A stretch of DNA of 64,000 nucleotides. It comes from Gammaproteobacteria bacterium. Its GTDB lineage: Bacteria > Pseudomonadota > Gammaproteobacteria > UBA4575. A program made the translations under genes and the position numbers. Location: NCBI GenBank assembly GCA_011523795.1, contig WTFY01000010.1, positions 371,479-435,478 on the forward strand. Reading direction: 5' to 3'. Below are positions 16,578 through 34,018 of the stretch, piece by piece (the first letter of the stretch is position 1; each line of letters opens with the position of its first letter). The notes below the pieces were generated by a model, which ran no database searches, had not been told where the DNA came from, and was given only the letters and a program-made list of their open reading frames with translations.

Positions 16578-16684
16578 GCTTGCACACAGTACGGGCAGGC
16601 AGGTTACAAGAGCCCATGATTGAATGGTGCCGACTGGCATGATCGGTCTGGCAGGCACTCCCCCGGAGTCGGAGAATTTCTAGC

Positions 16685-19033
16685 TTGGAGAAAAGTACGG
16701 ACAGGAAGGCATCACCTAACGCTGGTTCATCCCGCAGTATTCTGAAGAAAACCACCGAAGCTGACTGCGGTTTCATCGAGAAACCCGTACTTGTCCCGCA
16801 CCTGGAATTCAGGTTGCTGGGCGGGCGGCAAGCGCTGCTGGTTTCTGAAACCTTCAACACGCTGCTCCATGGGCAGCTGGTTTGCGATATTCTGCCGCTT
16901 CTTGATGGCCGCCGCACACGCCGGGACATCATGGCATCCCTGACCGGCAAGCATCTGGGGCCCGATATCCTGACCGCGCTCACCTTCCTGACAACCAAGG
17001 GGTATATTGTCTCGGGGGAGTACAGAATGGAACAGGGGCAGGCGGCATACTGGTCTTCACAGGGTGTCACCCCTCGATATGCCGAGGAGCGGCTGAAGGC
17101 ATTGCAGGTAGATATAGCCGGCGATGAAGGTCGCCACCTTGCCCGGCGGCTTGAAGCCATGGGTGTGTACCTGGACAGGAGCCATCCGGCCCTTTCCATT
17201 ATCATTTGTGCCGATTTTCTTGATGAGCGGAATGCGGCCTTCAACCGGCGCCATGTCAGCTCTGGCGTACCCTGGTTGCTGGTCAGGCCAAAGGGCGTGA
17301 TTCCACTGCTTGGCCCGGTTTTCCGGCCTGCGGAGCAGGGGCCTTGCTGGGCCTGCCTGGCCTATCGCCTGCAAGGCCAGCAGGAGGTCCATAACTTCCT
17401 GCGCAATCGTGCCGGCACTGAGGCCGCCTTTCAGCCCTTTGCGGCGGAACCCATGGTACTGGAGACGGTGTACGGGCTGTTTGCGGCGGAGATTGCCAAG
17501 TGGCTGGTCTTCGGCGAGCTGGCGCCAATACATGAGCATGCAATCACGCTGGATGTCGCTGCACTGAAAACGGCGAGACATCCGGTGCGCAGGCGGCCAC
17601 AGTGCGTGGTGTGCGGCGAGGAAAGGCACTTCAGCCCTGATCGCCCGGCCAGCCCGGTGCACCTCAAGTCCAGCCCCAAAAACGTTCAAAACAGTGGTGG
17701 TGTGCGCTCGGTGTCTCCCGAAGAGACCCTGGCCAAGTACCGCCATCTCATCAGCCCAGTCAGCGGGGTGGTGACCTGGATCGAACGTACCACGGACGTG
17801 CACGATCACTGGCTTCATGTCTATTGGGCCGGTAGCAATCTGGCCCTTCGCGTCAAAAACCTGAGCTCACTGAGACGCAGCCTGCGAAGCAAGAGTGCAG
17901 GCAAGGGAAGCACACCCGAACAGTCCGAGGCGAGTGCGCTTTGCGAGGCGGTTGAGCGCTATTCGGGCGCATTCCACGGGGATGAGATCCGTACTTGCAA
18001 ACGGTTTTCAGAATTTTCTGACAAGGAACAGGAGTTCGACGCCATCCACCCGAACCAGGTCCAGTTGTTCAGTGATCACCAGTTCGACCATGCGCGCGAG
18101 ATCAATGCGAGACAGCATCCCTACAATTTTGTTCCTGGCCGGCTCGACCCGGAGGCTGCGATCGAATGGTCGCCGGTCTGGTCGCTCACGCGAGATCGGC
18201 ACTGTTACCTTCCGACCTCCATGCTCTACAGCATGACGCCGGAGCAGCGAGGCACTTCGGACTTGATTGCGGATTCGAACGGCTGTGCGGCCGGCAATAC
18301 GCTGGAGGAAGCCATCCTGCAGGGATTTTTCGAACTGGTGGAACGTGACGCGTTCGCCATCTGGTGGTACAACCGGCTGCGCTTTCCCGCGGTCGACCTG
18401 GAGAGTTTTGGCGACGTCTACCTTGCGGGTGCGCAGGACTACTACCGAAAGCTCCACCGCGAGATGTGGCTGCTGGATATCACGGGTGATTTTGGCATTC
18501 CGGCCTTTATTTCCGTCTCGCGGCGAACCGATTCACAACCCGAAGACATCCTGTACGGGGCCGGTGCGCACACCGATCCGCATATCGCGGCCTTGCGTGC
18601 AGTATGCGAAATGAACCAGTGCCTGACCTGGGTTCCCCGCCCGGAAACCGGCCATACCGGGTACGGAGTGGATGACCCGATGTGCCTGTCATGGTGGAAG
18701 AACGCCACGCTTGAGGAATATCCCTACCTGGCCCCCGATCCCGGGGCCGCACCGCGGGGCCGCCCGGATTATTTCGTGCCCGAAACTTCGGATGTGAAAG
18801 AGGATGTCGAGCGGTGCGGTGCACTGGTCAAGGCCAAGGGCCTGGAGATGCTTGTGCTTGACCAGACCCGTCCCGATATCGGCATGCCGGTAGCCCGGGT
18901 GATCGTGCCGGGATTGCGTCACTTCTGGGAAAGATACGCACCGGGGCGCCTGTACGACGTGCCGGTCAACATGGGCTGGCGGGAAAAACCGTTGGCTGAG
19001 GCCGACCTCAACCCCGTCCCGGTCATCGCCTGA
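16685..19033 (+). CDS. TOMM cyclodehydratase: ThiF-like leader-binding domain fused to YcaO
   Basis: A 782-residue fused azoline synthetase that turns Cys, Ser or Thr of a leader-bearing peptide into thiazoline or oxazoline using ATP. The N-terminal half is the E1/ThiF-like partner with a Cys4 zinc site (CWAC at 221-224, CVVC at 307-310). The C-terminal YcaO half has the ATP-site motifs SEASALCEAVERYSG (414-428) and SNGCAAGNTLEEA with ELVERDA (531-556). It ends in a short proline pattern, NPVPVIA, as in peptide-cyclising YcaO proteins. The start is TTG 16685; no ATG or GTG fits ahead of the conserved region. The likely substrate is the NHLP precursor at 22068-22319. No flavin dehydrogenase to oxidise the azolines is in the window. 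Confidence 0.92.
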   Translation: MEKSTDRKASPNAGSSRSILKKTTEADCGFIEKPVLVPHLEFRLLGGRQALLVSETFNTLLHGQLVCDILPLLDGRRTRRDIMASLTGKHLGPDILTALTFLTTKGYIVSGEYRMEQGQAAYWSSQGVTPRYAEERLKALQVDIAGDEGRHLARRLEAMGVYLDRSHPALSIIICADFLDERNAAFNRRHVSSGVPWLLVRPKGVIPLLGPVFRPAEQGPCWACLAYRLQGQQEVHNFLRNRAGTEAAFQPFAAEPMVLETVYGLFAAEIAKWLVFGELAPIHEHAITLDVAALKTARHPVRRRPQCVVCGEERHFSPDRPASPVHLKSSPKNVQNSGGVRSVSPEETLAKYRHLISPVSGVVTWIERTTDVHDHWLHVYWAGSNLALRVKNLSSLRRSLRSKSAGKGSTPEQSEASALCEAVERYSGAFHGDEIRTCKRFSEFSDKEQEFDAIHPNQVQLFSDHQFDHAREINARQHPYNFVPGRLDPEAAIEWSPVWSLTRDRHCYLPTSMLYSMTPEQRGTSDLIADSNGCAAGNTLEEAILQGFFELVERDAFAIWWYNRLRFPAVDLESFGDVYLAGAQDYYRKLHREMWLLDITGDFGIPAFISVSRRTDSQPEDILYGAGAHTDPHIAALRAVCEMNQCLTWVPRPETGHTGYGVDDPMCLSWWKNATLEEYPYLAPDPGAAPRGRPDYFVPETSDVKEDVERCGALVKAKGLEMLVLDQTRPDIGMPVARVIVPGLRHFWERYAPGRLYDVPVNMGWREKPLAEADLNPVPVIA

Positions 19034-19173
19034 GGAGCCAGCCTGTTTAGGGAGCATCTCCATGCCGTGGAAATGAGCCCCATCCTGTAGGGGGGTGTTG
19101 CCCAGGTCTGCTGGGCCTTGAGCGTACAACCTGGGTCAGTGTGCATGGGCACTGCAGGACCTGTACAAATTCG

Positions 19174-19201
19174 TTGACATTCCGTCCCGGCGGACTATAT
19201 T
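19174..19201 (+). promoter_or_regulatory. Near-consensus sigma-70 promoter
   Basis: TTGACA (19174-19179, perfect) and TATATT (19196-19201) are separated by 16 bases. This is the best promoter match in the window. It would transcribe the candidate small peptide frame and the RND transporter gene, with a long leader of about 240 bases before the transporter start. Confidence 0.58.
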
Positions 19202-19237
19202 CTCCATCGCATTGACCTTCAGTCTGTGTTGCCGCGG

Positions 19238-19378
19238 ATGGTAAATACCTTGATCAACCTTGGTTTGGACTCAGTGGATTCGGAGCACTGGTCTGAGTTG
19301 GACTGCTCTCGGAGTAATAGGATTGCAGGCTGCGAAATGGCATGTGTATTACTTGGCATGAGGCTTCCGTTGCAATGA
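19238..19378 (+). CDS. Possible 46-residue peptide (tentative)
   Basis: A short frame beginning MVNTLINLGLDSVDSEHW lies about 30 bases downstream of the expected start of transcription from the 19174-19201 promoter. Its C-terminal third reads RIAGCEMACVLLGM, an Ala-Gly followed by two cysteines, which in this setting could resemble a leader/core junction. Against it: no Shine-Dalgarno sequence is visible, it is short enough to arise by chance, and it has no family resemblance. It may instead be part of the transporter's 5' leader. Confidence 0.25.
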   Translation: MVNTLINLGLDSVDSEHWSELDCSRSNRIAGCEMACVLLGMRLPLQ

Positions 19379-19447
19379 AGCTTGCTGCGCGACTTGCCGC
19401 CAAGGCCGTTCGCAGCTAGTCGCGTCATTCCTGTGAGCAAGCGCGGC

Positions 19448-21778
19448 ATGAAAAAAGGGCAATTTGCCAGGCGATTTGCCGAACAGGTGCTCACGGCCCG
19501 CTGGCTGGTCATCGTGGCCACGCTGTTACTGGTTGCGGGCGCATCAAGCGGCATCGCCCTGCTTGAATTCTCAGCCAACTACCGAATCTTCTTCGACGAA
19601 GACAATCCGCAGCTTCTGGCATTGGAAGCACTGGAGAATACTTACGGGAAGAACGAGAACATCGTGTTCCTGATTGCCCCGGACGATGGTGACGCCACGT
19701 CACAAAACGCACTGTCGGCCGCCGTCTGGCTCACGGAAGCCGCCTGGTTGACGCCCTATTCAAGGCGAGTCGACTCACTCGCCAATTTTCAGTACACGAC
19801 TGCCGATGGCGACGATCTGTATGTGCGGGACCTTGTTGATCCGCAGGAACTGGCCCAGGCCGAGGTGCGGTCACGAATTCGTGACGTTGCCCTGTCCGAC
19901 CCGCGGATAGCAGGCACCATTCTAGCCCGGAATGCTGATGTCAGCGTTGTAAACATCACGGTCGAGATGCCCGAGGAGGGCCTGCTGGAGGCTGTGGCCG
20001 AAGTCGCCGAATATGCCAGGTCGGTTGCCGCGGAGGCTGAAGAACGGTTTCCCGGCATAGACCTTCGCATCGTCGGCACGGTCATGATCAACCAAACCTT
20101 CCTGGAAGCCTCGATCAACAGCCAGAAGGTTTTCCTGCCCGCGAGCCTGCTGCTCATGGCCTTGATCCTTGGTGTTCTCACACGGGGCTGGGCAGGGGTG
20201 GCGGCGACCGGAATTGTCATAGTCTTTTCCATTTTCACGTCAGTGGGCCTGGGTGTGTGGGTCGGTTTACCCTTTTCCCCGCCCGTCTCGCCAGCACCGA
20301 CCATCGTGCTGATGATCGTCGTGGCAAACTGCGTGCACTTGCTGGTGGCCGTGCAGCAGCATTTGCGTGCGGGGGATTCCAAGCACGACGCCATCGTTGA
20401 AGCTGTCAGGCTCAACTTGCACCCGGTATTTCTGGCGAGCCTCACAACGGCGATCGGATTCTTGAGCATGAACTTTTCCGAAGTGCCGCCCTATCGTCAT
20501 CTCGGAAACTTCGTCGCATTCGGGATCGTCGCCTCTTTCGTTCTCTCCGTCACCTTTCTTCCGGCCCTGCTTTCGCTTCTTCCTATCCGTGCGGCAAAGG
20601 ACCGTCGGCTGTTCCGCGGACTCACAATGCACCGCTTGGCGGATGTTGTGTTGCGCCATAGAAAGCCGCTGTTTTGGGGATGGCTGGTGGTTGTGCTTGC
20701 AATGATTCTGTCCATTCCGCGAAACGAGCTCAATGATGTTCTGGTCCATTTTTTCGATGAGGGCGTTGAATTCCGGCAAGACGTGGACTTCATGGACGAG
20801 CACCTGAGCGGCAACACCCTGCTTGAGTACTCGCTGCACGCATCTGCTGAGGGAGGTGTCACCGATCCACTTTTCCTCGCCGAGGTTTCGAGCTTCGCCG
20901 GCTGGTACCGTGACCAGCCCCCTGTACGCCACGTGTCGGTCATTACTGATACCTTTCAGCAACTTAACAAGAGCATGCACGGAGACGACCCGGCTGCTTA
21001 CCGAATACCGGAAAGCCAGGAACTGGCGGCACAATACCTGCTGCTTTACGAGCTCTCGCTTCCGCAGGGTCTGGACCTGAACAATCAGATTGACAGGTCC
21101 AGGTCAGCCACGAGAGTGACGGTCTCGGCGGAAACACTTTCTTCGCAAGAAGTGCTTGAGCTGAATGCGCATGCCGAGGCATGGCTAAAGGAAAATGCAC
21201 CGCATGTTGCCGGCGTCAACAGCACCGGCCCCGCCGCGTTGTTCGCCTACATCGGGCATCGCAACATTCGGGCCATGCTGGTCGGGACAATGGTTGTTCT
21301 CTTGGCAATTTCTGTCATTCTGCTCGTCGCGTTGCAATCACTGCGACTGGGCTTGATAAGCATCGTCCCCAATTTGATTCCTGCAGTGCTGGGCTTCGGT
21401 GTCTGGGGATTGATGGTCGGACAGGTTGGACTCTCGCTATCTGTCGTGGTGGCCATGACCGTTGGCATCGTCGTGGATGACACTGTGCATTTTCTCAGCA
21501 AGTACCAGCGGGCGCGAAATGAATACGGCCAGAGTCCCGAGGAAGCGGTACGCTACGCCTTTGACACGGCAGGCCGGGCCCTGTTTACAACGACGGTCGT
21601 GCTGGTGGCCGGTTTTTTGATTTTTATATTTTCACCCTTCGTTCCCACCGCACAGGTGGGTGTCCTCACCGGGATGATTATTGCCTTTGCATTCATCGCC
21701 GACCTGACACTCCTGCCTGCGTTGCTGACAGCGGTGGACCGGAGTGCTGCAAAGCGGACTGCGCTTGCACCCGACTGA
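19448..21778 (+). CDS. RND superfamily (MMPL/HAE3-type) lipid or small-molecule exporter
   Basis: A 776-residue inner-membrane RND protein with two repeats, each with one membrane span, a periplasmic domain opening EFSANYRIFFDEDNPQL in the first, and a cluster of spans. The intramembrane acidic signature GIVVDDTVHFLSKYQRA marks it as an MMPL/hopanoid-exporter-like RND rather than a drug-efflux AcrB type. Such proteins commonly pair with a LolA-like lipoprotein-sorting protein and an outer-membrane protein; those partners occur at 31692-33739, on the other side of the NHLM genes. ATG 19448 is the preferred start; the frame stays open to TTG 19382 and includes a GTG at 19433. Confidence 0.88.
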   Translation: MKKGQFARRFAEQVLTARWLVIVATLLLVAGASSGIALLEFSANYRIFFDEDNPQLLALEALENTYGKNENIVFLIAPDDGDATSQNALSAAVWLTEAAWLTPYSRRVDSLANFQYTTADGDDLYVRDLVDPQELAQAEVRSRIRDVALSDPRIAGTILARNADVSVVNITVEMPEEGLLEAVAEVAEYARSVAAEAEERFPGIDLRIVGTVMINQTFLEASINSQKVFLPASLLLMALILGVLTRGWAGVAATGIVIVFSIFTSVGLGVWVGLPFSPPVSPAPTIVLMIVVANCVHLLVAVQQHLRAGDSKHDAIVEAVRLNLHPVFLASLTTAIGFLSMNFSEVPPYRHLGNFVAFGIVASFVLSVTFLPALLSLLPIRAAKDRRLFRGLTMHRLADVVLRHRKPLFWGWLVVVLAMILSIPRNELNDVLVHFFDEGVEFRQDVDFMDEHLSGNTLLEYSLHASAEGGVTDPLFLAEVSSFAGWYRDQPPVRHVSVITDTFQQLNKSMHGDDPAAYRIPESQELAAQYLLLYELSLPQGLDLNNQIDRSRSATRVTVSAETLSSQEVLELNAHAEAWLKENAPHVAGVNSTGPAALFAYIGHRNIRAMLVGTMVVLLAISVILLVALQSLRLGLISIVPNLIPAVLGFGVWGLMVGQVGLSLSVVVAMTVGIVVDDTVHFLSKYQRARNEYGQSPEEAVRYAFDTAGRALFTTTVVLVAGFLIFIFSPFVPTAQVGVLTGMIIAFAFIADLTLLPALLTAVDRSAAKRTALAPD

Positions 21779-22028
21779 AGTTCATTCCGAACGCCTTCTT
21801 GAGCAGGAAGCACGCCCTCAGGCTCGTTTCCGGACCCATGCACTCCTGCGAACCATGGCGTGCGATCAAGGCTGTTGGCTTCATACACCTTCAGGCAGGA
21901 GCCCTGGGGAGGGAACTTGATCAGGAAAACGAGACTGAAAGCGGCTTGGCCCCCAAGCCTGCGCACTGAACCGGAAATTCACGGTCTTGACTGCTTGAAA
22001 TAGCCATGTTAACGTCATATCACGAACG
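21779..22028. other. Intergenic region upstream of the NHLP precursor
   Basis: No gene is seen. A possible weak promoter occurs at the right end (TTGACT at 21987-21992 with TTAACG 16 bases later), leading into the repeat elements at 22007-22045. Confidence 0.4.
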
Positions 22029-22045
22029 TGTTAATGTCATTAACA
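22007..22045 (+). promoter_or_regulatory. Palindrome and direct repeat ahead of the RiPP precursor (candidate operator)
   Basis: TGTTAATGTCATTAACA at 22029-22045 is a perfect palindrome around one central base. Its left part recurs as TGTTAACGTCAT at 22007-22018, exactly 22 bases (about two helical turns) upstream. The spacing suggests a dimeric regulator binding the same DNA face twice, just before the precursor's ribosome site. The repeat structure is seen; the regulator is unknown. Confidence 0.5.
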
Positions 22046-22067
22046 ATCTGAATACAGGAGAATCATC

Positions 22068-22319
22068 ATGAGAAGCGGAGATGATATGCTGAAGCAGATT
22101 GTTGAGAAGTCTGCCTTGGATGCGGAGTTCAGGCAACAGCTTCTTGATGATCCAAAATCTACCATCAGTGGGGAGCTGGGTATTACAATTCCCGATTCGA
22201 TGAATGTCGTGGTCCATGAGAGCGACATGCAGACGGTGCATCTTGCACTGCCACCGGACCCGAACATCACTGAGGAGCAGCTTGAGGCGATTTCAGCCGG
22301 CCTTTGCTGTTGCTGGTAG
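22068..22319 (+). CDS. NHLP-type RiPP precursor with five-residue Leu-Cys-Cys-Cys-Trp core
   Basis: An 83-residue precursor whose first 78 residues form a nitrile hydratase alpha-subunit-like leader: an acidic helical start (DAEFRQQLLDDPKSTI), the VVVHESD...TVHLALPP strand segment and the helix NITEEQLEAISAG. Cleavage by C39-type peptidases after Ala-Gly (77-78) would leave only Leu79-Cys80-Cys81-Cys82-Trp83. Three consecutive cysteines are ideal substrates for the YcaO cyclodehydratase at 16685-19033, and the leader matches the NHLM exporter at 25493-31197. The ribosome site AGGAGA (22056-22061) is strong and a hairpin follows the stop. A core this short is unusual for the family; the cleavage site and product are inferred. 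Confidence 0.9.
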   Translation: MRSGDDMLKQIVEKSALDAEFRQQLLDDPKSTISGELGITIPDSMNVVVHESDMQTVHLALPPDPNITEEQLEAISAGLCCCW

Positions 22320-22326
22320 TTCTGAC

Positions 22327-22345
22327 AACCGGCGAGTAGCCGGTT
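22327..22345 (+). terminator. Hairpin just after the precursor gene
   Basis: AACCGGC and GCCGGTT form a perfect seven-pair GC-rich stem with a GAGTA loop, seven bases after the precursor stop. No T tract follows; it may be a weak terminator or protect the short transcript's 3' end. Confidence 0.45.
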
Positions 22346-22442
22346 AGGACGCGAAACCCTCTGCATTCGTGCCTGGTTTGCAGTGCCACGCTGTGCGCCA
22401 TGCGGACACAGGGCGGTTCGGTGTGGCCGTTCAAGGCTGATA

Positions 22443-23501
22443 TCAGGTGGAAACCGCTCCGGAAAGTACCATGAACACGTAGGCTTTCGCTTTTCGGAGT
22501 TGATTTTCAGAGATGACCAGTTTGATGTGGTGAATGCCACGTAGCATGACAAAACGCCCGGACTTTGCAAAGAGCGTTGTCGGTTTCGAAACCCAGTCAG
22601 CAAGTGCCGTCAGCTTCTCCGTGGCTACAAGGTCCTCATGACCGAGGGCATCCAAAAACGGGTCCCAATCGGTCAGGCCATCGAGCCAATAACGTGAATC
22701 CTTTGTATATCTCTGCTTGACGATAAGCGTAAGGCCGAGCGTCGGGCCAACACCTTCTTCCTGCACGTCAATATTCACCCCGGTCCTGACGATGTTCACG
22801 CGTTTCTTGAAGCGTGCAATCACGGAATCGACCGCAGAGACCTGGCCCGGCCAACCCGTGTTTTCGAGATAGCCACATATTTCCTGCTGCGATTTGAAAC
22901 CCATGATTGCCAAGCGGATTGCACGTGAGCGAGACGGGAATATGCCGAACGAATCCATGCGCGTATCGCCTGGCTGCGCCAGGTAGGCTCGTTCGACATT
23001 CTTCCGCTTGGTGTCGTGCATCCCCCAGCCTACACTGGAAACTAGCGCTTCAACCACCAGGCCGATATCGTTCACCTGACCACGGGCTCCAATGATTGGC
23101 CGTTCCCCGGGCCGAAGGAACATTCCCGGAAGCGAACAGCCGCTTTCCTGCGCCGAGCCAATGTCATATTCCAGCATCAGCTTGCGGCCTACGATTTCAC
23201 GCAGGGGCGAGTTTTCGGCATCCATTTGTGTACACAACCGCGCGATCGCTTTTGCAGTCTCATCTGTCCTGTCAGTCCGTGCGCGCTCCATGAAAAACCC
23301 TGCCGTCCTGGTTCCGCTTGCCAGGGAAACGCCGAAATCCGCTTCAGGCCTGTGCGTATGCAACGGCAGTTCAAAGCCGAACGGAAGGGCGCCCATGGTA
23401 ATGGGATGTTTCCTGGCACATTCGAGTATGCGCTCCCATTCCGGGACTCCGATAAGAATCGGCGAAATCCTGTTTCGAAAGTGCTCAAGCAATTCACCCA
23501 T
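22443..23501 (-). CDS. Unrecognised 352-residue protein of the NHLM cluster
   Basis: I do not recognise this family. The product appears soluble, with no signal peptide or membrane segment. It has an N-terminal helical region, a His-containing FELPLHTHRPEADFG segment, and a C-terminal half of alternating strands ending in the RGIHHIKLVI segment. Rough resemblance in size and pattern to two-domain biosynthetic enzymes is possible but not demonstrable. It is the last gene of the minus-strand series that starts at the HlyD-like gene, and converges on the precursor gene. ATG 23501 has GAGGG seven bases upstream, but the frame stays open about 24 codons further (to about 23573) with protein-like composition and an AGGAG, so a rare-start longer form cannot be excluded. 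Confidence 0.6.
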   Translation of the reverse strand: MGELLEHFRNRISPILIGVPEWERILECARKHPITMGALPFGFELPLHTHRPEADFGVSLASGTRTAGFFMERARTDRTDETAKAIARLCTQMDAENSPLREIVGRKLMLEYDIGSAQESGCSLPGMFLRPGERPIIGARGQVNDIGLVVEALVSSVGWGMHDTKRKNVERAYLAQPGDTRMDSFGIFPSRSRAIRLAIMGFKSQQEICGYLENTGWPGQVSAVDSVIARFKKRVNIVRTGVNIDVQEEGVGPTLGLTLIVKQRYTKDSRYWLDGLTDWDPFLDALGHEDLVATEKLTALADWVSKPTTLFAKSGRFVMLRGIHHIKLVISENQLRKAKAYVFMVLSGAVST

Positions 23502-23776
23502 GGTACCGCCCTCTTCGGCAAGACGGTCCTGGGTAAGTGTGACTGCCTCGTCAATATCTATAACCGTCTCCTCATGCTACACAAATCATTTCGTACAGAA
23601 GCCCAGGCGCGAGGCCTGGCCAGAAGTCACACATGCCCGGCGCGCCGGTCCTGGGCATGCTGGCGTCTGACGGGTTTGATTGCATGCCCTGGCGCCCTGT
23701 CAACCGGCCTCAAGCGGCATAGAAAGGGAAGTACCGGCAGCCAAGCAACCACCGCCATAAAGCGAGGCGACAAGAA
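23502..23776. other. Intergenic region inside the minus-strand cluster
   Basis: Together with the stretch up to 23966 this leaves about 465 bases between the toroid fusion gene and the 352-residue protein gene. Nothing firm is seen apart from the possible upstream extension of the latter and the tentative 52-residue frame at 23777-23935. Confidence 0.4.
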
Positions 23777-23935
23777 TTAACGAGAAACTACCCAATGGAA
23801 AATGTGCGAAAGGGCATTAAGATTCATCGGCTTCATGGGCTGCGTGATGCCTGCCCTGTTCAGGCCTGGGCCATATCCTGCGGTTGTATCTCGCAGCATG
23901 GCGGCTCCCTGATAGACCCTTGCATCAAGTTTCAT
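23777..23935 (-). CDS. Possible 52-residue peptide (tentative)
   Basis: A short frame on the same strand as, and 31 bases beyond, the toroid fusion gene. It begins MKLDARVYQGAAMLRD, has a Gly/Pro-rich middle and ends with a hydrophobic-aromatic stretch and Ser-Arg. It has no cysteine and only a weak ribosome site. Its position between two cluster genes makes it worth noting as a candidate small peptide or precursor, but it may be a chance frame. Confidence 0.22.
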   Translation of the reverse strand: MKLDARVYQGAAMLRDTTAGYGPGLNRAGITQPMKPMNLNALSHIFHWVVSR

Positions 23936-23966
23936 GTTACCTGCGAGGCACCTTACCTGAAATCCT

Positions 23967-25268
23967 TCAGGCCCTCAAGATTTCTACGAGACGCTCCAGG
24001 GCCTCGATACAAAAAGCAGAGGTAACGGCTTCAGAGCCATGCCCTATCTGCCCTACAGCGCCCCACTTCAGCGACTGGTCACCAAACGCGAGAAGCTCCG
24101 GCCAACTGCCGTCCTCATGTTGCGAGCTTAGGAGCCTTTCCACCTGACGTTTCGCATCGATGCTTTCAAGGCTGCCGGTATTGTAGAGCGCTGACACGGC
24201 CTGGGCGGTCTGGAGGATGTTGCCGAATTCTCCCTGCTCATCACGCAAGCCCAGGATACGGTCTGCAAGTAGCGGGCGCAGTTGATCCAGGGCAGGTTGC
24301 ACACGAATCATGGCACGGGTGATTGCATAGCAGATTGTGACTGTGTCGGGGTACCATTTGGACGAGCCCTCGAGGCTCCCGTCGGCAATCAGGGATTTCA
24401 GCCATCGTTGGGCAGCCTTGGTTTCGGGGTTGTCACCGAGGTAAGCGATGACGTTTGCATTGACTACGGGGTCCGCTTCGATACGAAATCTCGACACGAC
24501 ATTGGGCTCGTCTTCCTCCAGTACCCAGGTCATGAAACGACCCTCCTCGTCACGGTTCGCCAAGATTCGCGGAACGTTCCTTCCCAGCAAGATCCAGGGA
24601 TGAGTCCCGATGACAAGGGAGCAGGTGGTGGTACTGTCAAGATCCTGGGGCAGATGCCGGTAGTAGCGCCACAATCCGGGGTATTCAATGGTGTTGGCAA
24701 GATACGTCTTGGTGGCGGTGCATAGGGCCTTGGCCTTCGCTTCATCGCAGCATTCCAGGGCCAGTACGCAAAGAGCCGAGATAAAAGGAGGTCTTTCGAA
24801 ATGCCGTGGGATGTCCGGGTCGGCTATGTTGAACCGGATGCAGTGCCAGGCACCATTTTCGTCAATTGTGGATTCCAGGAAATCGAGGCCGCGGCGGATA
24901 CTTTTCCTGCCCGCTTTTACAAGCTCCCTGGTGGTGGCTGCGTGCTGTCGGACGTACTCACTTTCAGGGGCAGGGGAACGAAGAGCCGGTGCGGGGTCAT
25001 GAAGTGTCTTGCGAAGATACTCAAGTGAAGCAACGCCTGTTTTAGCCGCCTCCCGTTCGGCCTCACTGAGTTTGCTACACGGCGGCAGCACCAAGTGAGT
25101 CGAGGTATAGGTTTCTTCGTGCACGTGAATTTCATGATCCTCGGCCAGCGTCACGCCGAGTTCCTTTTCGATTGTTTCTTTGGGCTTCCCGAGCAGGCGT
25201 TCGCGAAAGTCACTGTCTTCGCCCGCTCTCGACACGAGAAATTCTTCTGCGTTATTCGGCTTTTTCAT
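23967..25268 (-). CDS. NHLP leader domain fused to a terpene-cyclase-like alpha-toroid protein
   Basis: A 433-residue protein in two parts. Residues 1-75 are an NHLP-type leader: AEEFLVSRAGEDSDFRERLL, KETIEKELGVTLAEDHEI, then HVHEETYTSTHLVLPPCSKL, closely parallel to the 22068-22319 precursor (HVxE...TxHLxLPP). A Lys-Thr-Gly stands where the precursor has its Ser-Ala-Gly cleavage site. The rest is an alpha-toroid of the squalene-cyclase/prenyltransferase fold, with repeated QW-like segments (DENGAWH, DEQGEFGN, QHEDGSWPE). QDLDSTTTCSL resembles the DxDD acid motif of class II terpene cyclases with the last Asp replaced by Ser. GGAAAA-like ribosome site before ATG 25268. It may be leader-guided for export or recruitment; catalytic function is inferred only. 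Confidence 0.82.
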   Translation of the reverse strand: MKKPNNAEEFLVSRAGEDSDFRERLLGKPKETIEKELGVTLAEDHEIHVHEETYTSTHLVLPPCSKLSEAEREAAKTGVASLEYLRKTLHDPAPALRSPAPESEYVRQHAATTRELVKAGRKSIRRGLDFLESTIDENGAWHCIRFNIADPDIPRHFERPPFISALCVLALECCDEAKAKALCTATKTYLANTIEYPGLWRYYRHLPQDLDSTTTCSLVIGTHPWILLGRNVPRILANRDEEGRFMTWVLEEDEPNVVSRFRIEADPVVNANVIAYLGDNPETKAAQRWLKSLIADGSLEGSSKWYPDTVTICYAITRAMIRVQPALDQLRPLLADRILGLRDEQGEFGNILQTAQAVSALYNTGSLESIDAKRQVERLLSSQHEDGSWPELLAFGDQSLKWGAVGQIGHGSEAVTSAFCIEALERLVEILRA

Positions 25269-25492
25269 CGATGTTTTCCATTTTCGGGGTCATGGTCGAA
25301 CGTGAATGCTCAGCGGTTAACATACATGACGATTGGCGTGATTTCAGCAGGGAGGCGGTGTCGTAGAAACCTGTTACCACGATGCAGTCAAAACGGGTTT
25401 GTAGGCAACGACTGCTGAGGATGAAGTCGAACGGGGAATACCTTGTGGATGATCCTGCAACGCTCGTCCGCCAGCCGGTCTGCCTGCCCGGA
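25269..25492. other. Gap between the toroid fusion gene and the NHLM ABC gene
   Basis: This 224-base gap could hold a secondary promoter for the toroid fusion gene. On the minus strand it contains ATGTTAAC (25315-25322), the same eight bases found at 22006-22013 ahead of the precursor. No gene is seen. Confidence 0.35.
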
Positions 25493-28435
25493 TCAGGCGA
25501 TCTGTCTTTTGACCAGTTTTCTGAATACCCCTTCAGCCTCCATGAGTTCCTTGAAGGAGCCGCTTTGCACAACTTTTCCGGCCTGTAACACGTAGATGCG
25601 ATCAGCCTGTTGCAGCGTGGACAGGCGATGGGCGATGACAACCCGGGTGGAGGTCAGGGCAGTGAGGTTCTGCATGACCTTGGCCTGGTTTTCGTTATCC
25701 AGCCAGTTGGTTGCCTCATCAAACAGCATGATTCGCGGACTGCCGATCACCGAGCGGGCGATTGTGACGCGCTGACTTTCACCCCCTGACAAAACCGCTC
25801 CGCCGGACCCGACCATGGTCATCATGCCCATGGGCATGCCCTTGATTTCGTTTTCGACTTCTGCAACCCTGGTCGCTGTCCAGACATCCTCAGTCACCAC
25901 TTCCTCGTGATGACTGACCAGATTGTCCCAGATATCCATGGGATGGAGCCCGACAGATTGTGGCACTGCGCCGATTTTCCGGCGCACCTGTTTCAGGTTC
26001 AGGTGCCTCAGGTCCCGCCCGTCGTAATACACTGCGCCAGCAGTCGGGCGGTCGACTCCAAGCGCGAGCCGGAACAGGGTGCTCTTGCCTGCACCGGACT
26101 CGCCGGTGATCGCGACAAATTCGCCAGGACGGGCGTGAATCGTCACATCATCGAGAATTAACGGGCCATCAGGATCGTAACGAAAGGAAACCCGGTCGAA
26201 CAGAATTTCGCCACCCAGATATTCAACCGGCTCTCCTTCGGTCTCGGTTTCAGGAACTGCCGCGAGCAGCGGACGCATCTGGTCGAATGCAGGCAGCATG
26301 GCGGCAATGGTGCCGAAGGACTCGCCCAGCCGGGCGATTGCGGACTGGAAAACGATGAAGACCAGGTAGACGACGAGAAAATCGCCGATCAGGATGTCCC
26401 GGTCGCTCACCGCTGCCACCGCGAATAGCAGTACCCCACCCGCGAGAAAGGGAAGCGCGGCACCAAATGCCCGTGCATGCCCCTCAAATGCCCCCAGTTC
26501 GAGTTCTGCGCGTTTCTGCTCGCGGTAATCCTGTGCCCAGATGGCGAATGCCGAACCTTCCGCGTTTTCCACGCGCAGTTTGGTGAAACCGCCCACGATC
26601 TGGAACAGCCTGCCGGTGACACGACGCGTTGCACGGATCATCCGCCCGTATGGTGAAATCTGGAGCAGGCCAAGGGCTACCGTGATCAGCAGCGAAGCCA
26701 GACTGAAGGCGAGGGTAATGACCCCGAGGGTGGTGTTGTAGAAGAAGATGATGCCAAATACCGGAAGCAGGAAAATAATCGACAGTAAGCTGTCGGCGAC
26801 GACTCCCTGCAGGCCATCGCGAAGATTCTGGAATGTCATCCCCGACATGGCCAGGTCACCGGTTGAATGGCGGTGCAGAATGCTTGCCGGAAGGCGCATG
26901 AGGCGGTCCCAAAAGGCAGCTTCGGCCCGCGATGCGGAACGACCCTCAAGCCGCATCATTGCCGTGCTTTGAAACAGGTGCAGCAGTGCACCGAGCAGAC
27001 CAAATACCGCCAGCGCCACGGCCACTGAATAGATCACTCCGGCACTTCCGCCTGCAGTTATTTCATTTGCAGCGTAGCCTAGGGCGAGGGCTGGCAACAG
27101 TTTGATCAGGCCGCCCGGAAGCCCGGAAATCACCAGCCGCACCAGATCCGCGGCTGACCCATGCAGGGCGATTCCCAGCAGGTCAGACGGTTTCACGTTC
27201 TCCGAAGGCAAGGGGCGATAGAACATCCAGGCTTCTTCCCCCAGCGTGTTGGCGCGACCTGCTGCAATCCGTACGCTGCGCTTGCTGACTGGGTCGATTT
27301 CCCGATAGCGCCCAAATTTTCCCGGCAGCAGCGCTACGGGCTGGCCATCCTCTGCCCGAAATCCCAGCATCGCGTTACTGTCGCCGCGCCACCAGTGGTC
27401 TTCGGCTTTCAATCGTACGCGCCGGGCGCGTACGGCTGATGCATCAAGCACTTCAACGAGGCTGACCGGAGTATCGGAAGGTTCCGAGCGCGTGGGAATC
27501 TTGAAATCGATACCTTCATGGCGGCCGATGATTTGCAAGGCATCTGTCAGGGCCGTGTCTTCGACACGGGCATCCTGGCCTGTCGGCAAGTCATAGATAT
27601 TGAAAAGCCGCTGTCGTGCAGTTTTTTCAGCCGTACGTCGGCTGGTCGTCCGCGCACGTTCGAGATTCACTTCGTCGACCACGGCCAGTTGGCGGTTAAG
27701 GCGTTCCAGGGCGAATGCAACCGCGTGAAAGGATGCGAGCGCGGGCAGCAACATGTCTTGCTGCGCCAGTGTTTCCGTTGATTTGCCCAACAATGTGGCC
27801 CTGTCAAACAAGGTGAGCCAGCTTGTCCGCGTCAGCGGTATCATGGTTTCATGTGAGCCGCTTGCTTCGGCAAGCTCTGCTTGGTCGACGATGTCCATGA
27901 ACAGGAATTCGCCGCGCAGTGGCTTGGATACCCATACCACATTGCGATGTACGGACAGTGTGCAAGGTGGAAAGGTCCGTGCCATACCGGGATCGGCCAG
28001 CGCAGTAGCACGCGGAATGGGGCTTGCAAACCGAGAAAGTGTGTCCGTAATGGCGGTCAGCCAGGTATCCGTCTGTTCCGCCAGTTCTGCCGGATGAACC
28101 TCGGACAGCAAGGATGCCGGGAGGCGCTTCAGAAGGGTACCTGGCGATCCTTTTGCAATCAGGCTGAGGGTGGTATCTTTATTGTTGTCCCGTTCGTCGG
28201 GTGCCACCCCCGGCAGTATCCAGCCCGCTTCGCGACGCAGCAGATGCTGCGGCGCTGCCTGTTCCACCCCGTCCTTGAATTCAACCAGGAACAGATTGAC
28301 GGAACCCTGGTCAATGAACCAGACACTGCCTGGGTCGTCGAGTTTCACCGGCAAGTTGCCGGCACAGGGTACGGTTGTGCCGGAACGAGCTACGAGTTCG
28401 GCAATCGATGTGCAGTTCGGGCTTTTGTCCAGCAT
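25493..28435 (-). CDS. NHLM-type ABC transporter, permease/ATPase partner without peptidase domain
   Basis: A 980-residue protein matching the second ABC component of NHLM bacteriocin export systems. The first 400 or so residues are a soluble region typical of this subfamily, followed by a membrane domain (about 430-720) and an ABC ATPase with Walker A GESGAGKSTLF, signature LSGGESQRV and Walker B RIMLFDEATNWLD. It overlaps the start side of the preceding peptidase-ABC gene by one base, so the two are translationally coupled and probably assemble together. Its partner provides leader cleavage; this one probably completes the pump. Confidence 0.9.
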   Translation of the reverse strand: MLDKSPNCTSIAELVARSGTTVPCAGNLPVKLDDPGSVWFIDQGSVNLFLVEFKDGVEQAAPQHLLRREAGWILPGVAPDERDNNKDTTLSLIAKGSPGTLLKRLPASLLSEVHPAELAEQTDTWLTAITDTLSRFASPIPRATALADPGMARTFPPCTLSVHRNVVWVSKPLRGEFLFMDIVDQAELAEASGSHETMIPLTRTSWLTLFDRATLLGKSTETLAQQDMLLPALASFHAVAFALERLNRQLAVVDEVNLERARTTSRRTAEKTARQRLFNIYDLPTGQDARVEDTALTDALQIIGRHEGIDFKIPTRSEPSDTPVSLVEVLDASAVRARRVRLKAEDHWWRGDSNAMLGFRAEDGQPVALLPGKFGRYREIDPVSKRSVRIAAGRANTLGEEAWMFYRPLPSENVKPSDLLGIALHGSAADLVRLVISGLPGGLIKLLPALALGYAANEITAGGSAGVIYSVAVALAVFGLLGALLHLFQSTAMMRLEGRSASRAEAAFWDRLMRLPASILHRHSTGDLAMSGMTFQNLRDGLQGVVADSLLSIIFLLPVFGIIFFYNTTLGVITLAFSLASLLITVALGLLQISPYGRMIRATRRVTGRLFQIVGGFTKLRVENAEGSAFAIWAQDYREQKRAELELGAFEGHARAFGAALPFLAGGVLLFAVAAVSDRDILIGDFLVVYLVFIVFQSAIARLGESFGTIAAMLPAFDQMRPLLAAVPETETEGEPVEYLGGEILFDRVSFRYDPDGPLILDDVTIHARPGEFVAITGESGAGKSTLFRLALGVDRPTAGAVYYDGRDLRHLNLKQVRRKIGAVPQSVGLHPMDIWDNLVSHHEEVVTEDVWTATRVAEVENEIKGMPMGMMTMVGSGGAVLSGGESQRVTIARSVIGSPRIMLFDEATNWLDNENQAKVMQNLTALTSTRVVIAHRLSTLQQADRIYVLQAGKVVQSGSFKELMEAEGVFRKLVKRQIA

Positions 28436-30645
28436 CAGCCCGACTTGACCAGTTTGTAATACATGCCACCCTGGTCCGCAATCAACTCATCGTGCGTACC
28501 GCGCTGTACTGTGACGCCCTTGTCAAGCACGATAATTTCGTCGCAATCCCGCACGGTACTCAGCCGGTGCGCCACGATCAGGCAGGTGACACCGCGACGC
28601 CGCAAGGCATCATCAACGTATTCCTCTGTCGCTGCATCGAGCGCGCTGGTCGCCTCGTCCAGAATGAGCACTGTCGGATTGCCCACCAGCGCACGGGCGA
28701 TTTCCAGCCGTTGTCGCTGGCCTCCACTGAAATTCACCCCGCCTTCCTCGACGACGGTTGAATATCCTTGTGGCCTGAGCAGGATTTCGTCATGAATCTG
28801 GGCATCCCGCGAGGCGGCGAAGATGACTTCATCCGGTATGGCGGAGTTCCACAAGGTGATATTGTCGCGCAGCGACGCGGAAAAGAGCACGATTTCCTGA
28901 TCCACCATGGAAATGGACTGCCGGAGCACTTCCTCGGGAATCTCATCCCGCAGATGCCCATCAAACAGGATTTCGCCTGACCATGGCTGGTAGACACCCG
29001 AAACCAGACGTGCCAGGGTCGACTTGCCAGAACCACTGGGACCGACTACGGCGACCCGCTGTCCTGGCTTGATCATGAGGCTGAAGTCCTGTATCAAAGG
29101 CGGTCGGCTCTTGTTGAAACCGAAGGTGACGTTTTGCAGTTCAAGCTGGCCGGCAAGTTGGAGCCGACCATTGAATGTGGGGATTGACTCCGATTCCGGA
29201 CTTCGGCGGCTGTAAATGGGGTCTTCTGCGGTCTTGGAGATATCCTCAAGCCGTTGCAGATCGGTTTCGAGCGCCTGGCGTTTGTCGACGAACTCCAAAA
29301 AACGGCCAACAGGTGCCAGGAACATCTCTGCCAGGATATAGAACCCAACCAGTGCTCCCAGGGTCATTTCGCCGGTCATGACCAGGCTTCCCCCTATGCC
29401 GATGATCACGGCACTGCGAAGCACGGCAACCAGGCCCGGGAGCGCAGTATTGACCGAGCCCAGTTCGGAATAGAGCTGGCGCGCATGCAGTTCGCGCGCT
29501 TGGTGACCGCTCCAGCGGGAAAAAAACCGGTCATCCGATCCTGTCATGCGCAGGTTGTCTGCATGGCTCAACATCTGCATGCCGACGCCTATCAACAATC
29601 CTTGTTCTCGCCGCATGGCCTGGCTGCGAACCCCCCGAAGCGCGTTGAGAAAGTGGAGCAACATTCCATGTGCAAGGGCCAGCAACAGTACCATCAGTGT
29701 GAGCAGGACATCGTAGGCAAGCATCGCGGCCAGTAACACCGCGCTCATTGCCATGTCGATAATGAGTACAAGAAACTGGTCGGTCAGATTCTTCGCAATC
29801 CTGTCGATGGACGAGACCCGGTCAGTCAAATCACCAGCCAGCCTGTGTTCAAAAAACTCCACCGGCAATCGCAGTAACCGCGACACGCCCCGGTTGTAGC
29901 CAATCACCGATATCCGGACTTCGAGTCGCTTCAGGAACCGGTGCTTGAGCAGGGACAAGATGTATACTAGGACACCGCCGCCGAGCAGGGCTGCCACCAG
30001 TCCACCCCAGGGACCATGGTTTTCCAGAACATCGTCCACGAAAAAACTGAGAGCTACGGGCACGACAAGTGCCAGTAACGTCAACATGAATCCGCAAGCA
30101 ATCACTACGGCAAGCACACTCCATGATCCGGCAAGCAAGGTGGTCAATTGACTGAGCAAGTCGGGACGCTCGCCGCCGGGTTTGAAATCGCCACTGCGCT
30201 TGAATCGCAGCGCAATTCCACTGTAGTCCTTGCTGAATTCCTCGGCAGTGACCCTGCGCCGCCCCGTGGACGGGTCATTGAGGTAGAAATAGCCGTCATC
30301 AAAACCCTCAAGGACAACGAAATGGCTGAATTGCCAGAACAAAATCAGAGGCAACTGCAGTTTTTTCAGTTGCTCGGCGCGTATACTGAGTCCATTGCAT
30401 TCAAGACCATAGTGTCTGGAAGCGCGCGCGAGGCTCGCAGCACTGCTGCCGTCTCGACTCACCTCGCATTTTTCACGCAATTCCGTAAGCGGCACCCAGC
30501 GTCCGAAGTATGCCAATATGCTGCCAAGGCAGGCGGCACCACATTCTGATGCGTGCATCTGCAGCAGGATTGGCGTGGTGATCTTTTGTTTCAGGGAGTC
30601 CGAGGCAGTGTTGTCTCCAGCCCCTTTAGAGGCGCTTGGCGGCAT
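28435..30645 (-). CDS. NHLM-type peptidase-containing ABC transporter (C39 peptidase + ABC)
   Basis: A 736-residue exporter that removes the leader and moves the mature peptide across the inner membrane. The C39 peptidase domain (residues about 20-155) has the catalytic Cys in QMHASECGAACLGS, His in FSHFVVLEGF and Asp in YLNDPSTGRR, so it should be active, cutting after Gly-Gly or Ala-Gly. Membrane spans follow, then the ATPase with GPSGSGKSTLA, FSGGQRQRLE and VLILDEATSALD. The gene begins directly at the stop of the HlyD-like gene and overlaps the next ABC gene by one base. The natural target is the AISAG site of the 22068-22319 precursor. Confidence 0.94.
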   Translation of the reverse strand: MPPSASKGAGDNTASDSLKQKITTPILLQMHASECGAACLGSILAYFGRWVPLTELREKCEVSRDGSSAASLARASRHYGLECNGLSIRAEQLKKLQLPLILFWQFSHFVVLEGFDDGYFYLNDPSTGRRRVTAEEFSKDYSGIALRFKRSGDFKPGGERPDLLSQLTTLLAGSWSVLAVVIACGFMLTLLALVVPVALSFFVDDVLENHGPWGGLVAALLGGGVLVYILSLLKHRFLKRLEVRISVIGYNRGVSRLLRLPVEFFEHRLAGDLTDRVSSIDRIAKNLTDQFLVLIIDMAMSAVLLAAMLAYDVLLTLMVLLLALAHGMLLHFLNALRGVRSQAMRREQGLLIGVGMQMLSHADNLRMTGSDDRFFSRWSGHQARELHARQLYSELGSVNTALPGLVAVLRSAVIIGIGGSLVMTGEMTLGALVGFYILAEMFLAPVGRFLEFVDKRQALETDLQRLEDISKTAEDPIYSRRSPESESIPTFNGRLQLAGQLELQNVTFGFNKSRPPLIQDFSLMIKPGQRVAVVGPSGSGKSTLARLVSGVYQPWSGEILFDGHLRDEIPEEVLRQSISMVDQEIVLFSASLRDNITLWNSAIPDEVIFAASRDAQIHDEILLRPQGYSTVVEEGGVNFSGGQRQRLEIARALVGNPTVLILDEATSALDAATEEYVDDALRRRGVTCLIVAHRLSTVRDCDEIIVLDKGVTVQRGTHDELIADQGGMYYKLVKSG

Positions 30646-31197
30646 TTATGACCGCCTCATTCGCAATAGTGTGACCGGGGCTTGCCTGCCAATTTTGATG
30701 ACAACTTGGCATTCCCTGCTCGCAAGGGAAGCAAAATAAAGGCTTTCGTCGAGTGTGATGTTTACCCGGTGTAAGGACACCGGCGCTGCAGGGTCGAACA
30801 CTGCCAGCTCCTCGGATAGGGGTATGGCGGTGATTTTTGCAACCTTCCCGTCGAGTGAGTCGGCTTGTCCATCTGACTTTTCCAGCTCTATCACCGCTGG
30901 CATCCCGGCCTTGATATGCGGTGCGACGTCGCTCCGGGCCCAGACGAGTACTTGCACGGTCCTGTTGCCCTCAAGCAGGTTTTCACCAGGTTCGACCAGC
31001 ACGCCATCCACCGCGAGACTACGGGCCATGCTCCCGAAGAAGAGCCACACGGCAAGGATGAACAGTAAAAGAGCGATGACAGCAACAAGAAGCCGCTCCC
31101 GCGGTGTGGAAATCGTCAGCAGCCGGTCAAGTTGTTCCCGTTCTTCCTTTGCTTCGGCAACAGTATTGTGGAATGAGTCAAATGGATTATTGAACAC
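30646..31197 (-). CDS. Shortened HlyD-like NHLM secretion protein
   Basis: The adaptor position in the NHLM export operon is filled by a 183-residue protein, far below the roughly 400 residues usual for NHLM HlyD-type adaptors. It keeps a cytoplasmic N terminus, one membrane span (about 36-57, LLVAVIALLLFILAVWLFFG), a first lipoyl-like strand SLAVDGVLVEPGENL and a C-terminal barrel ending VTLLRMRRS. The coiled-coil hairpin that reaches the outer-membrane tunnel is missing. The ends look natural, with no frameshift seen. Start at GTG 31197 is preceded by GGGGAG. Export may stop in the periplasm or use another outer-membrane route. Confidence 0.78.
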   Translation of the reverse strand: MFNNPFDSFHNTVAEAKEEREQLDRLLTISTPRERLLVAVIALLLFILAVWLFFGSMARSLAVDGVLVEPGENLLEGNRTVQVLVWARSDVAPHIKAGMPAVIELEKSDGQADSLDGKVAKITAIPLSEELAVFDPAAPVSLHRVNITLDESLYFASLASRECQVVIKIGRQAPVTLLRMRRS

Positions 31198-31608: not shown

Positions 31609-31691
31609 GCCACTCGTTCGTCACGGTACCTGTGTAGATGTTTCCTGACTACGAAACTGCCGAAATCCGGCTTGTTGGCCGAGACTGGACA

Positions 31692-33937: not shown

Positions 33938-34018
33938 TTTGCGGGAGTGTTGTGTACACGACACATCCAAATATCCCGAGAAGGTGTTATCGACCGACAT
34001 CTGTGGAAGTCATGTAGG

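What the first reader, a model, noticed from the sequence alone, without database searches (positions are those of the whole stretch)
16685..31197. NHLM/TOMM peptide pathway whose predicted core is only Leu-Cys-Cys-Cys-Trp
Seen: a ThiF-YcaO cyclodehydratase, an NHLP leader peptide, and a C39 peptidase/ABC export operon within 15 kb. The precursor ends five residues after an Ala-Gly site in the place where NHLM leaders are cut. Known: YcaO azoline synthetases convert Cys to thiazolines and C39 peptidases cut after double-Gly-type sites. Inference: the product is a very small, thiazole/thiazoline-rich pentapeptide, possibly a metal chelator, rather than a long bacteriocin. NHLP cores are usually tens of residues, so this would be an unusual minimal RiPP.
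Basis: partly seen in the sequence, partly recalled or inferred. Interest (0 to 1): 0.93.

Follow-up and report, generated by a model that had tools for sequence, protein, structure and literature searches.

The report
Tiny sponge-symbiont peptide with terpenoid tail
This bacterial gene cluster encodes a peptide whose active part is only five residues (Leu-Cys-Cys-Cys-Trp), like the published "srp" clusters of sponge bacteria, and two neighbouring genes are predicted to make enzymes that would attach a terpene to it and fold that terpene into rings, so its natural product may be larger and greasier than assumed so far.

Summary
In detail: a ThiF-YcaO cyclodehydratase, an 83-residue NHLP precursor ending ...ISAG|LCCCW, and a C39/ABC exporter. 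It is no frameshift: 120 of 120 listed homologues end in LCCCW. The tiny core is already in print: SrpE (LCCCW), SrpC (three thiazolines) and SrpI (Trp-6-brominase) of sponge srp clusters; the window also holds an SrpI-type halogenase (33947-35293). What I did not find in print for srp: two further cluster genes look like peptide-terpenoid enzymes. ORF 22443-23501 is predicted to be an ABBA-fold prenyltransferase. ORF 23967-25268 is a predicted class II terpene cyclase (closest fold: drimenol synthase; motif Asp conserved) behind an NHLP-leader domain. In 77 genomes the cyclase and SrpI track the LCCCW core (47 and 48 of 49 with it; 4 and 5 of 28 without). I predict a brominated tri-thiazoline pentapeptide with a cyclised prenyl group, probably on Trp. 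[quoted passage not shown] Main weakness: the prenyltransferase also occurs in 23 of 23 sister loci whose cores do not end in Trp.

The parts
22068..22319 (+). SrpE-type NHLP precursor, 83 aa; leader 1-78 (...EEQLEAISAG), core LCCCW 79-83
   Evidence: TIGR03793 68.3 bits; 120 of 120 listed homologues end LCCCW; in those 120, position -7 is L in 120, -4 is I in 89 and V in 31, -2 A in 120, -1 G in 120
16685..19033 (+). SrpC-type ThiF-like/leader-binding + YcaO cyclodehydratase
   Evidence: TIGR03604 273 bits, TIGR03882 143 bits, PF02624 318 bits
33947..35293 (+). SrpI-type flavin-dependent Trp halogenase (predicted Trp-6-brominase by analogy with SrpI)
   Evidence: PF04820 150.9 bits; genome search places it; tracks the LCCCW core in 77 genomes
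22443..23501 (-). Predicted ABBA-fold aromatic prenyltransferase (no family hit)
23967..25268 (-). NHLP-leader domain (residues 1-78) fused to a predicted class II terpene cyclase (about 110-433), motif D209-L-D211-S212
28435..30645 (-). NHLM ABC transporter 1 with C39 peptidase (predicted to remove the leader and export)
   Evidence: PF03412 116.8 bits; TIGR03796 844.7 bits against a cut-off of 853.3
25493..28435 (-). NHLM ABC transporter 2
   Evidence: TIGR03797 669.7 bits against a cut-off of 709.4
30646..31197 (-). Short HlyD-like protein (183 aa)
   Evidence: weak TIGR03794, 23.1 bits (cut-off 156.2), 51 residues only; a match in 51 of the 80 related loci
14133..16577 (+). Membrane fatty-acid-desaturase/hydroxylase-like domain fused to a GlnE-like domain; role unknown, possible oxidation of the product
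   Evidence: PF00487 98.8 bits, PF03710 26.6 bits; a match, some partial, in 69 of 80 related loci
19382..21778 (+). MMPL/HAE3-type RND exporter
   Evidence: PF03176 120 bits
31638..32510 (+). LolA-like outer-membrane lipoprotein-sorting protein
   Evidence: PF17131 202 bits; in 13 of 45 Trp-core loci (window counted) and 0 of 23 others, as far as the held DNA reaches
32510..33739 (+). Possible outer-membrane barrel (DUF1302-like, just under cut-off)
   Evidence: PF06980 22.8 bits, cut-off 23.2

Best explanation
The cluster encodes an SrpE-type precursor whose core is LCCCW, and its product is predicted to be a three-thiazoline pentapeptide that is likely brominated on its C-terminal Trp and would also be prenylated and terpene-cyclised, probably on that same Trp, before the leader would be cut off and the product exported. 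Steps: (1) the NHLP leader docks the YcaO enzyme, which closes the three Cys to thiazolines (inferred from SrpC/SrpE and from the related NHLP enzyme MprC, in print); (2) the halogenase brominates the Trp indole (inferred from SrpI, in print); (3) the ABBA-fold enzyme adds a prenyl chain to the Trp indole (inferred from fold, genetic linkage and the analogues MppC and NctPC; donor length unknown); (4) the class II cyclase protonates the chain with D211 and closes ring(s) (inferred from fold and conserved Asp); (5) the C39 transporter cuts after Ala-Gly and exports, and the RND/LolA/barrel proteins may carry the greasy product across the outer envelope (inferred). The order of steps 2-4 is unknown. 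The NHLP domain of the cyclase has lost the hydrophobic -7 and -4 residues of the C39 site in 41 of 41 copies, so it is predicted to stay on the enzyme as a docking domain. The confidence given is for the terpenoid step on this peptide; Trp as acceptor is about even odds (see the second rival, which shares the rest).
Against: The prenyltransferase is present in 23 of 23 sister loci whose cores have no Trp or Tyr, so it may act on something else (thiazoline, Cys, C-terminus), and Trp as acceptor is unproven. No match of the prenyltransferase to a Pfam or NCBIfam family at E<=1e-3 or to a PDB sequence; its listed fold matches have query TM-scores of only 0.35-0.56. Co-occurrence is strongly structured by descent and transfer, and the tree-based test does not reach 0.05. 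Genome G056 (core LCCCGW) has the cyclase but no SrpI; G055 has LCCCW and cyclase but no SrpI; G053 and G069 have LCCCW and SrpI without a cyclase; G001, G015, G038, G044 and G048 have SrpI without the exact LCCCW pattern (mostly draft MAGs, possibly incomplete). 10 of the 53 counted SrpI matches run over one or two in-frame stops, though each has an open frame of 425-508 aa. No product has been seen. No prenyl-diphosphate synthase lies in the window (two elsewhere in the genome).
Confidence: 0.6

Rival explanations
1. Plain srp reading: the product is only the brominated tri-thiazoline LCCCW. The prenyltransferase-like and cyclase-like proteins do something else, for example make a separate terpenoid, or are worn-down enzymes that bind leaders.
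For: Published co-expression and in vitro work formed thiazoles and bromo-Trp on an LCCCW core without these two proteins, with MprC/MprD standing in for SrpC (PMC10286304). The motif is DLDS(T), not DXDD.
Against: The prenyltransferase sits on the same strand within 400 bp behind YcaO in 57 of 67 loci, and the cyclase is fused to an NHLP domain and tracks the Trp core. D211 is invariant in 41 of 41, so it is not decaying. Drimenol synthase, with DLDTT at the aligned place, is a working cyclase by its PDB titles.
Confidence: 0.2
2. The prenyl group goes onto a feature shared by all these mini-cores (a thiazoline or Cys, the C-terminal carboxylate, or the freed N-terminus); the Trp matters only as bromination site or as nucleophile that ends the ring closure by the cyclase. 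This rival shares the terpenoid step with the best explanation and differs only in the acceptor.
For: Prenyltransferase in 23 of 23 loci with cores such as RCCC, LCCCGI, LSCCL; Glu44 and 28 other residues invariant in the 61 aligned copies of both types.
Against: The prenyltransferase falls into two separate identity bands by core type, with position 243 Asn in 36 of 37 Trp-type copies and His in 24 of 24 others, two of the latter from loci without a visible precursor, as expected if acceptors differ. The closest analogues act on Trp (PMC13290415, PMC12715784, passages).
Confidence: 0.35
3. The NHLP-cyclase is itself an exported or matured cargo: a protein-sized NHLP precursor cut by the C39 transporter.
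For: TIGR03793 match 49.4 bits (cut-off 50.9) and invariant Gly78 at the -1 position.
Against: The C39 recognition positions are lost: -7 is Arg and -4 is Ala in 41 of 41, against Leu and Ile/Val in 120 of 120 SrpE sequences. The body has the fold of a class II cyclase.
Confidence: 0.05
4. One reading: a thiazole-rich pentapeptide metallophore.
For: Three adjacent azolines could bind a metal (chemical reasoning only).
Against: No metal receptor, metal regulator or reductase among the cluster parts annotated. Not tested directly.
Confidence: 0.1

Closest known systems
srp clusters of marine sponge microbiomes (SrpE, SrpC, SrpI; Nguyen et al. JACS 2021, not held; PMC10286304, PMC10858898)
   Same: NHLP precursor with core LCCCW, YcaO enzyme, SrpI-type Trp halogenase
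   Different: The passages that I read describe cyclodehydration and bromination only; I saw no mention there of the prenyltransferase or the NHLP-cyclase. The 2021 paper and all supplements were not readable, so it may list these genes.
mpp cluster of Moorena producens (MppE, MppI, MppC, MppD; PMC11791876, PMC12715784, passages)
   Same: SrpI-like brominase, ABBA prenyltransferase acting on Trp with a long leader, and a terpene synthase in one RiPP cluster
   Different: Nif11-type leader, lanthionine ring instead of thiazolines, 7-residue core; the passages say nothing of a leader domain on MppD
NctPC and ChrPC terpenoid-RiPP maturases (Hubrich et al. Chem 2024, not held; described in PMC13290415, passages)
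   Same: Peptide prenyltransferase plus terpene cyclase working on a Trp; NctPC pairs an ABBA fold with an MstE-like cyclase
   Different: There prenyltransferase and cyclase are one fused enzyme (ChrPC's prenyltransferase has another fold); here they are separate and the cyclase carries an NHLP domain; here the core also has three Cys and the cluster a halogenase
Drimenol synthase AsDMS and MstE (PDB 9mhs, 9m7d-f, 6sbb-g)
   Same: Best fold matches of the cyclase domain; DLDTT in drimenol synthase aligns with DLDST here
   Different: AsDMS carries a HAD-type domain and binds free farnesyl diphosphate; MstE binds prenylated dihydroxybenzoates; no NHLP domain is named for either

Membership tests
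srp (sponge-derived RiPP proteusin) cluster | NHLP precursor with core LCCCW | tested here: met
   core as printed in PMC10286304 and PMC10858898
srp (sponge-derived RiPP proteusin) cluster | YcaO cyclodehydratase and flavin-dependent Trp halogenase in the same cluster | tested here: met
srp (sponge-derived RiPP proteusin) cluster | Sequence orthology to the published SrpE/SrpC/SrpI letters | not tested
   published sequences not fetched; identity inferred from core and gene content
srp (sponge-derived RiPP proteusin) cluster | Three thiazolines and 6-bromo-Trp formed on the core | not testable with these tools
   needs biochemistry
NHLM (nitrile-hydratase-leader) RiPP system | TIGR03793 leader above cut-off | tested here: met
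   68.3 bits, cut-off 50.9
NHLM (nitrile-hydratase-leader) RiPP system | NHLM ABC1, ABC2 and HlyD models above cut-off | tested here: not met
   ABC1 844.7 of 853.3, ABC2 669.7 of 709.4 (both just under), HlyD 23.1 of 156.2 (short protein); a divergent variant
ABBA (DMATS-type) aromatic prenyltransferase | ABBA barrel fold | tested here: met
   predicted model
ABBA (DMATS-type) aromatic prenyltransferase | Sequence-family match | tested here: not met
   no Pfam or NCBIfam hit at E<=1e-3, no PDB sequence or profile hit
ABBA (DMATS-type) aromatic prenyltransferase | Prenyl transfer activity | not testable with these tools
   needs biochemistry
Class II terpene cyclase | alpha/alpha-barrel closest to class II cyclases | tested here: met
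Class II terpene cyclase | Catalytic Asp in DXDD/DxDTT-type motif | tested here: met
   D211 in DLDS, 41 of 41, aligned to the drimenol synthase Asp replaced in D333N; its catalytic role is recalled
Terpenoid RiPP (NctPC/ChrPC type) | Prenyltransferase and terpene cyclase in a RiPP cluster with Trp in the core | tested here: met
   by predicted fold and linkage
Terpenoid RiPP (NctPC/ChrPC type) | Prenyltransferase and cyclase fused in one protein | tested here: not met
   two separate ORFs; not filed as a NctPC/ChrPC homologue
Terpenoid RiPP (NctPC/ChrPC type) | Cyclised prenyl group on the peptide | not testable with these tools
   needs product

The most novel reading that the evidence does not exclude
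The srp clusters, spread over many bacterial phyla, make peptide-terpenoid hybrids: a five-residue brominated tri-thiazoline peptide bearing a polycyclic terpenoid on its C-terminal Trp, built by a prenyltransferase and by a terpene cyclase that carries its own leader-type domain. It would be one of the most widespread terpenoid-RiPP families, and its product would be missed by any search that uses masses without a prenyl group.
Probability: 0.5. Interest if true: 0.82.

Novelty: new variant of a known kind. Interest (0 to 1): 0.6.

Why it matters
srp clusters are widely distributed in sponge microbiomes (so the title of the 2021 paper, seen in reference lists), and I met no report of the mature product in what I read (that it is cryptic is recalled). 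A prenyl and ring-closing step would change the predicted mass by 136-272 Da and the polarity greatly, gives exact masses to look for in existing sponge data, and links a well-studied brominase system to the young class of terpenoid RiPPs. A leader domain built into a tailoring enzyme would be an unusual way to organise a RiPP assembly line. The sister loci (RCCC, LCCCGI, LSCCL and others) show that cores of four to six residues are the rule in this family (70 of 70).

Tried and rejected
Frameshift or truncated core: rejected, 120 of 120 listed homologues end at the same Trp. NHLP-cyclase as secreted cargo: disfavoured by loss of the C39 positions. Origin of the cyclase's NHLP domain by recent duplication of the neighbouring srpE: not supported; the 33 SrpE rows form one side of a branch (100/98) and the 17 cyclase domains lie on the other side with the three unfused-locus precursors (few columns, long branches, bootstrap not settled, so only a hint). 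In L086 precursor, cyclase and prenyltransferase lie in that order on one strand, which would fit an old precursor-cyclase fusion; left as an idea. Broader hunt for cyclase homologues: 2 of 369 genomes of the same class, the window's own and one other. LCCCW pattern in 38 relatives: 3, the window's genome and two of the same genus, so it is sporadic.

Paper searches: six phrases for terpenoid-RiPP hybrids gave 0 papers. Proteusin/terpene cyclase/prenyltransferase/RiPP/precursor peptide gave 17 papers, 15 listed, of which I opened passages of four; polycyclic isoprenoid/sponge/RiPP gave 558, 12 listed, none newly opened; srp/sponge/proteusin/prenyl gave 3, passages of all three seen; two earlier searches listed 18 and 20 of 90, one later 15 of 51. 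In what I saw no paper assigns these two genes in srp; unopened papers, supplements and subscription papers remain unchecked. PDB profile search with the prenyltransferase alignment found nothing.

Rows left out: A1 used 40 of 43 eligible loci plus the window (L023, L056, L061 dropped for odd length); A2 used 60 of 67 plus the window (L048, L059, L060, L061, L069, L072, L075 dropped to shorten it); A3 used 19 loci plus the window and three of the unfused loci (L086 and L089 not included). The NHLP tree used a sample: 14 SrpE rows with Trp, 19 without, 17 cyclase domains, 3 unfused-locus precursors. The YcaO trait test left out L027 (same genome as L080) and 13 loci without a visible precursor. 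The LCCCW pattern was exact, so LCCCGW does not count. In the 77-genome table partial cyclase hits (G038 and G044 at contig ends, G001 a shorter frame) were counted as present, only the cyclase body was searched there, and unfused about-40% homologues (second hits in G018, G031, G058, the only hit in G048) were not counted. L042 has both an LCCCW and a WCCCGN precursor and was counted as Trp type.
Full report
OBSERVATION. The 83-residue precursor at 22068-22319 matches the NHLP leader model from residue 6 to 78, the Ala-Gly, leaving LCCCW. A database search returned 700 homologues at E<=1e-3, of which the best 120 are listed; 115 of the 120 are 83 aa, and 120 of 120 end SAGLCCCW. The C39-site positions are uniform in those 120: -7 Leu 120, -4 Ile 89 or Val 31, -2 Ala 120, -1 Gly 120.

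ALREADY IN PRINT. PMC10286304 (first of three parts read) says that the SrpE core LCCCW has its three Cys made into thiazolines by SrpC and that SrpI brominates the C-terminal Trp at indole-6. PMC10858898 (passages) repeats this and gives an NHLP leader structure. PMC9426513 (passages and one section) reports srp-like clusters in two of three sponge species. The original paper (JACS 2021, PMC8780398) is not held. So the tiny core, its thiazolines and a brominase are known; the window is an srp-type cluster by content. I did not compare letters with the published genes. That the window's host lives in a sponge is inferred from this likeness; the genome itself is unnamed.

RELATED LOCI. A scan of named genomes with the YcaO protein found 177 relatives, of which the best 80 were kept as loci. 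In 67 of these 80 I found 70 NHLP precursors, all 70 with cores of 4-6 residues: 43 LCCCW, one LCCCGW and 26 others such as RCCC, LCCCGI, LCCCL, LSCCL, RCCCCA, LCCGG. I call the 44 loci with a Trp-ended core W and the 23 others B. W loci lie in six named phyla and B loci in six, with one B record unplaced.

LINKAGE AND COVARIATION. The prenyltransferase lies on the same strand within 400 bp behind YcaO in 34 of 44 W loci and 23 of 23 B loci. The full-length NHLP-cyclase is in 41 of 44 W loci and 0 of 23 B loci, and in 37 of the 41 it lies on the same strand less than 3 kb before YcaO. Whole genomes were then searched (77 genomes): the exact LCCCW-stop pattern occurs in 49. SrpI orthologues (E<=1e-100) are in 48 of these 49 and in 5 of the other 28; the cyclase is in 47 of 49 and 4 of 28. 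Of these four, three also have SrpI and one (G056) has the core LCCCGW. Ten of the 53 counted SrpI matches run over in-frame stops. Fisher p values (9e-14, 1e-13) ignore relatedness. On a quick YcaO tree the core type changes six times. In five starred independent pairs the cyclase changes with it in 4.9 on average and never against it (p 0.0625), SrpI in 4.5 (p 0.125); five pairs cannot reach 0.05. The prenyltransferase sequence type follows the core (60-82% identity to the window copy in W, 32-51% in B), while YcaO does not. The window is itself a mosaic: its YcaO is nearest to a B locus (L003, 72%), while its prenyltransferase, precursor and cyclase are W type.

INDEPENDENT CONTEXTS. Unfused cyclase homologues (34-40% identical in L083-L086; a more distant one in L089) sit next to prenyltransferase homologues in five loci. 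L083-L086 also match the NHLM ABC proteins (L083 only in part); L089 was not tested for them. Four of the five have an NHLP precursor (none was found in the 16 kb held of L085), and in 4 of 4 the core holds an aromatic residue...GGSNDDFDASGW...AGCDGSTDYAWDC...GGIAPTDDSY...GGVCWSNCSDMGP. This fits a prenyltransferase-cyclase pair that works on aromatic residues, but four cases are few and I have no background rate.

ANALOGUES. PMC13290415 (passages) describes NctPC, an ABBA prenyltransferase fused to an MstE-like cyclase that geranylgeranylates Trp and cyclises the chain, and ChrPC. [quoted passage not shown]

MECHANISM AND LIMITS. I infer that SrpE's core is cyclodehydrated, brominated, prenylated and ring-closed before C39 cleavage and export. 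Shown: genes, core, conservation, fold predictions, covariation. Inferred: every chemical step here, the acceptor, the donor length and the order. The strongest counter-evidence is the prenyltransferase in 23 of 23 B loci, whose cores have no Trp or Tyr; there it must act elsewhere or on another peptide, so Trp as acceptor stays at about even odds. The NHLP domain of the cyclase lacks the C39 hydrophobic positions (-7 Arg, -4 Ala in 41 of 41), so it is predicted to be a fixed docking domain, not a leader to be cut.

VERDICT. The new content is the predicted terpenoid half of the pathway and the leader-fused cyclase: a new variant of a known kind, of fairly high interest because it is directly testable.

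Noticed in passing
window 23501-23570 (-): Most of the 120 listed homologues of the prenyltransferase are about 20 residues longer; in L064 the frame starts upstream at a Met before DIDEAV. The window has the same reading frame there but the codon at that place is ATA, so its start may be the inner ATG at 23501.
   Followed up: partly
window 14133-25268: The cluster looks like a mosaic: YcaO is nearest to a locus with a different core (L003, 72%), while precursor, cyclase and prenyltransferase are of the Trp type.
   Followed up: partly
23 loci between L002 and L074: Sister clusters with other mini-cores (RCCC, LCCCGI, LCCCL, LSCCL, RCCCCA, LCCCG, LCCGG) have the prenyltransferase but no NHLP-cyclase in the locus; 10 of 23 carry a gene family whose L019 member (13561-14460) is a Methyltransf_11 protein.
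   Followed up: partly
L083, L084, L085, L086, L089: Loci pairing an unfused class II cyclase-like gene with an ABBA-like prenyltransferase; L083 also has a full-length Trp halogenase; L086 has precursor, cyclase and prenyltransferase in a row on one strand.
   Followed up: partly
window 14133-16577: Fatty-acid-desaturase-like membrane domain fused to a GlnE-like adenylyltransferase domain, with a match in 69 of 80 related loci; its role in the pathway is unknown.
   Followed up: no
window 19382-21778 and 31638-33739: A second possible export route (MMPL/HAE3 RND protein, LolA-like protein, DUF1302-like barrel) beside the NHLM ABC exporter.
   Followed up: no
window 30646-31197: The HlyD-like protein has 183 aa against 421 positions in the NHLM HlyD model, and homologues of similar length recur in related loci.
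   Followed up: no
L062:14240-15421: A Rieske ring-hydroxylating oxygenase-like gene (393 aa), beside the precursor in L062; its family recurs in six Trp-core loci.
   Followed up: no
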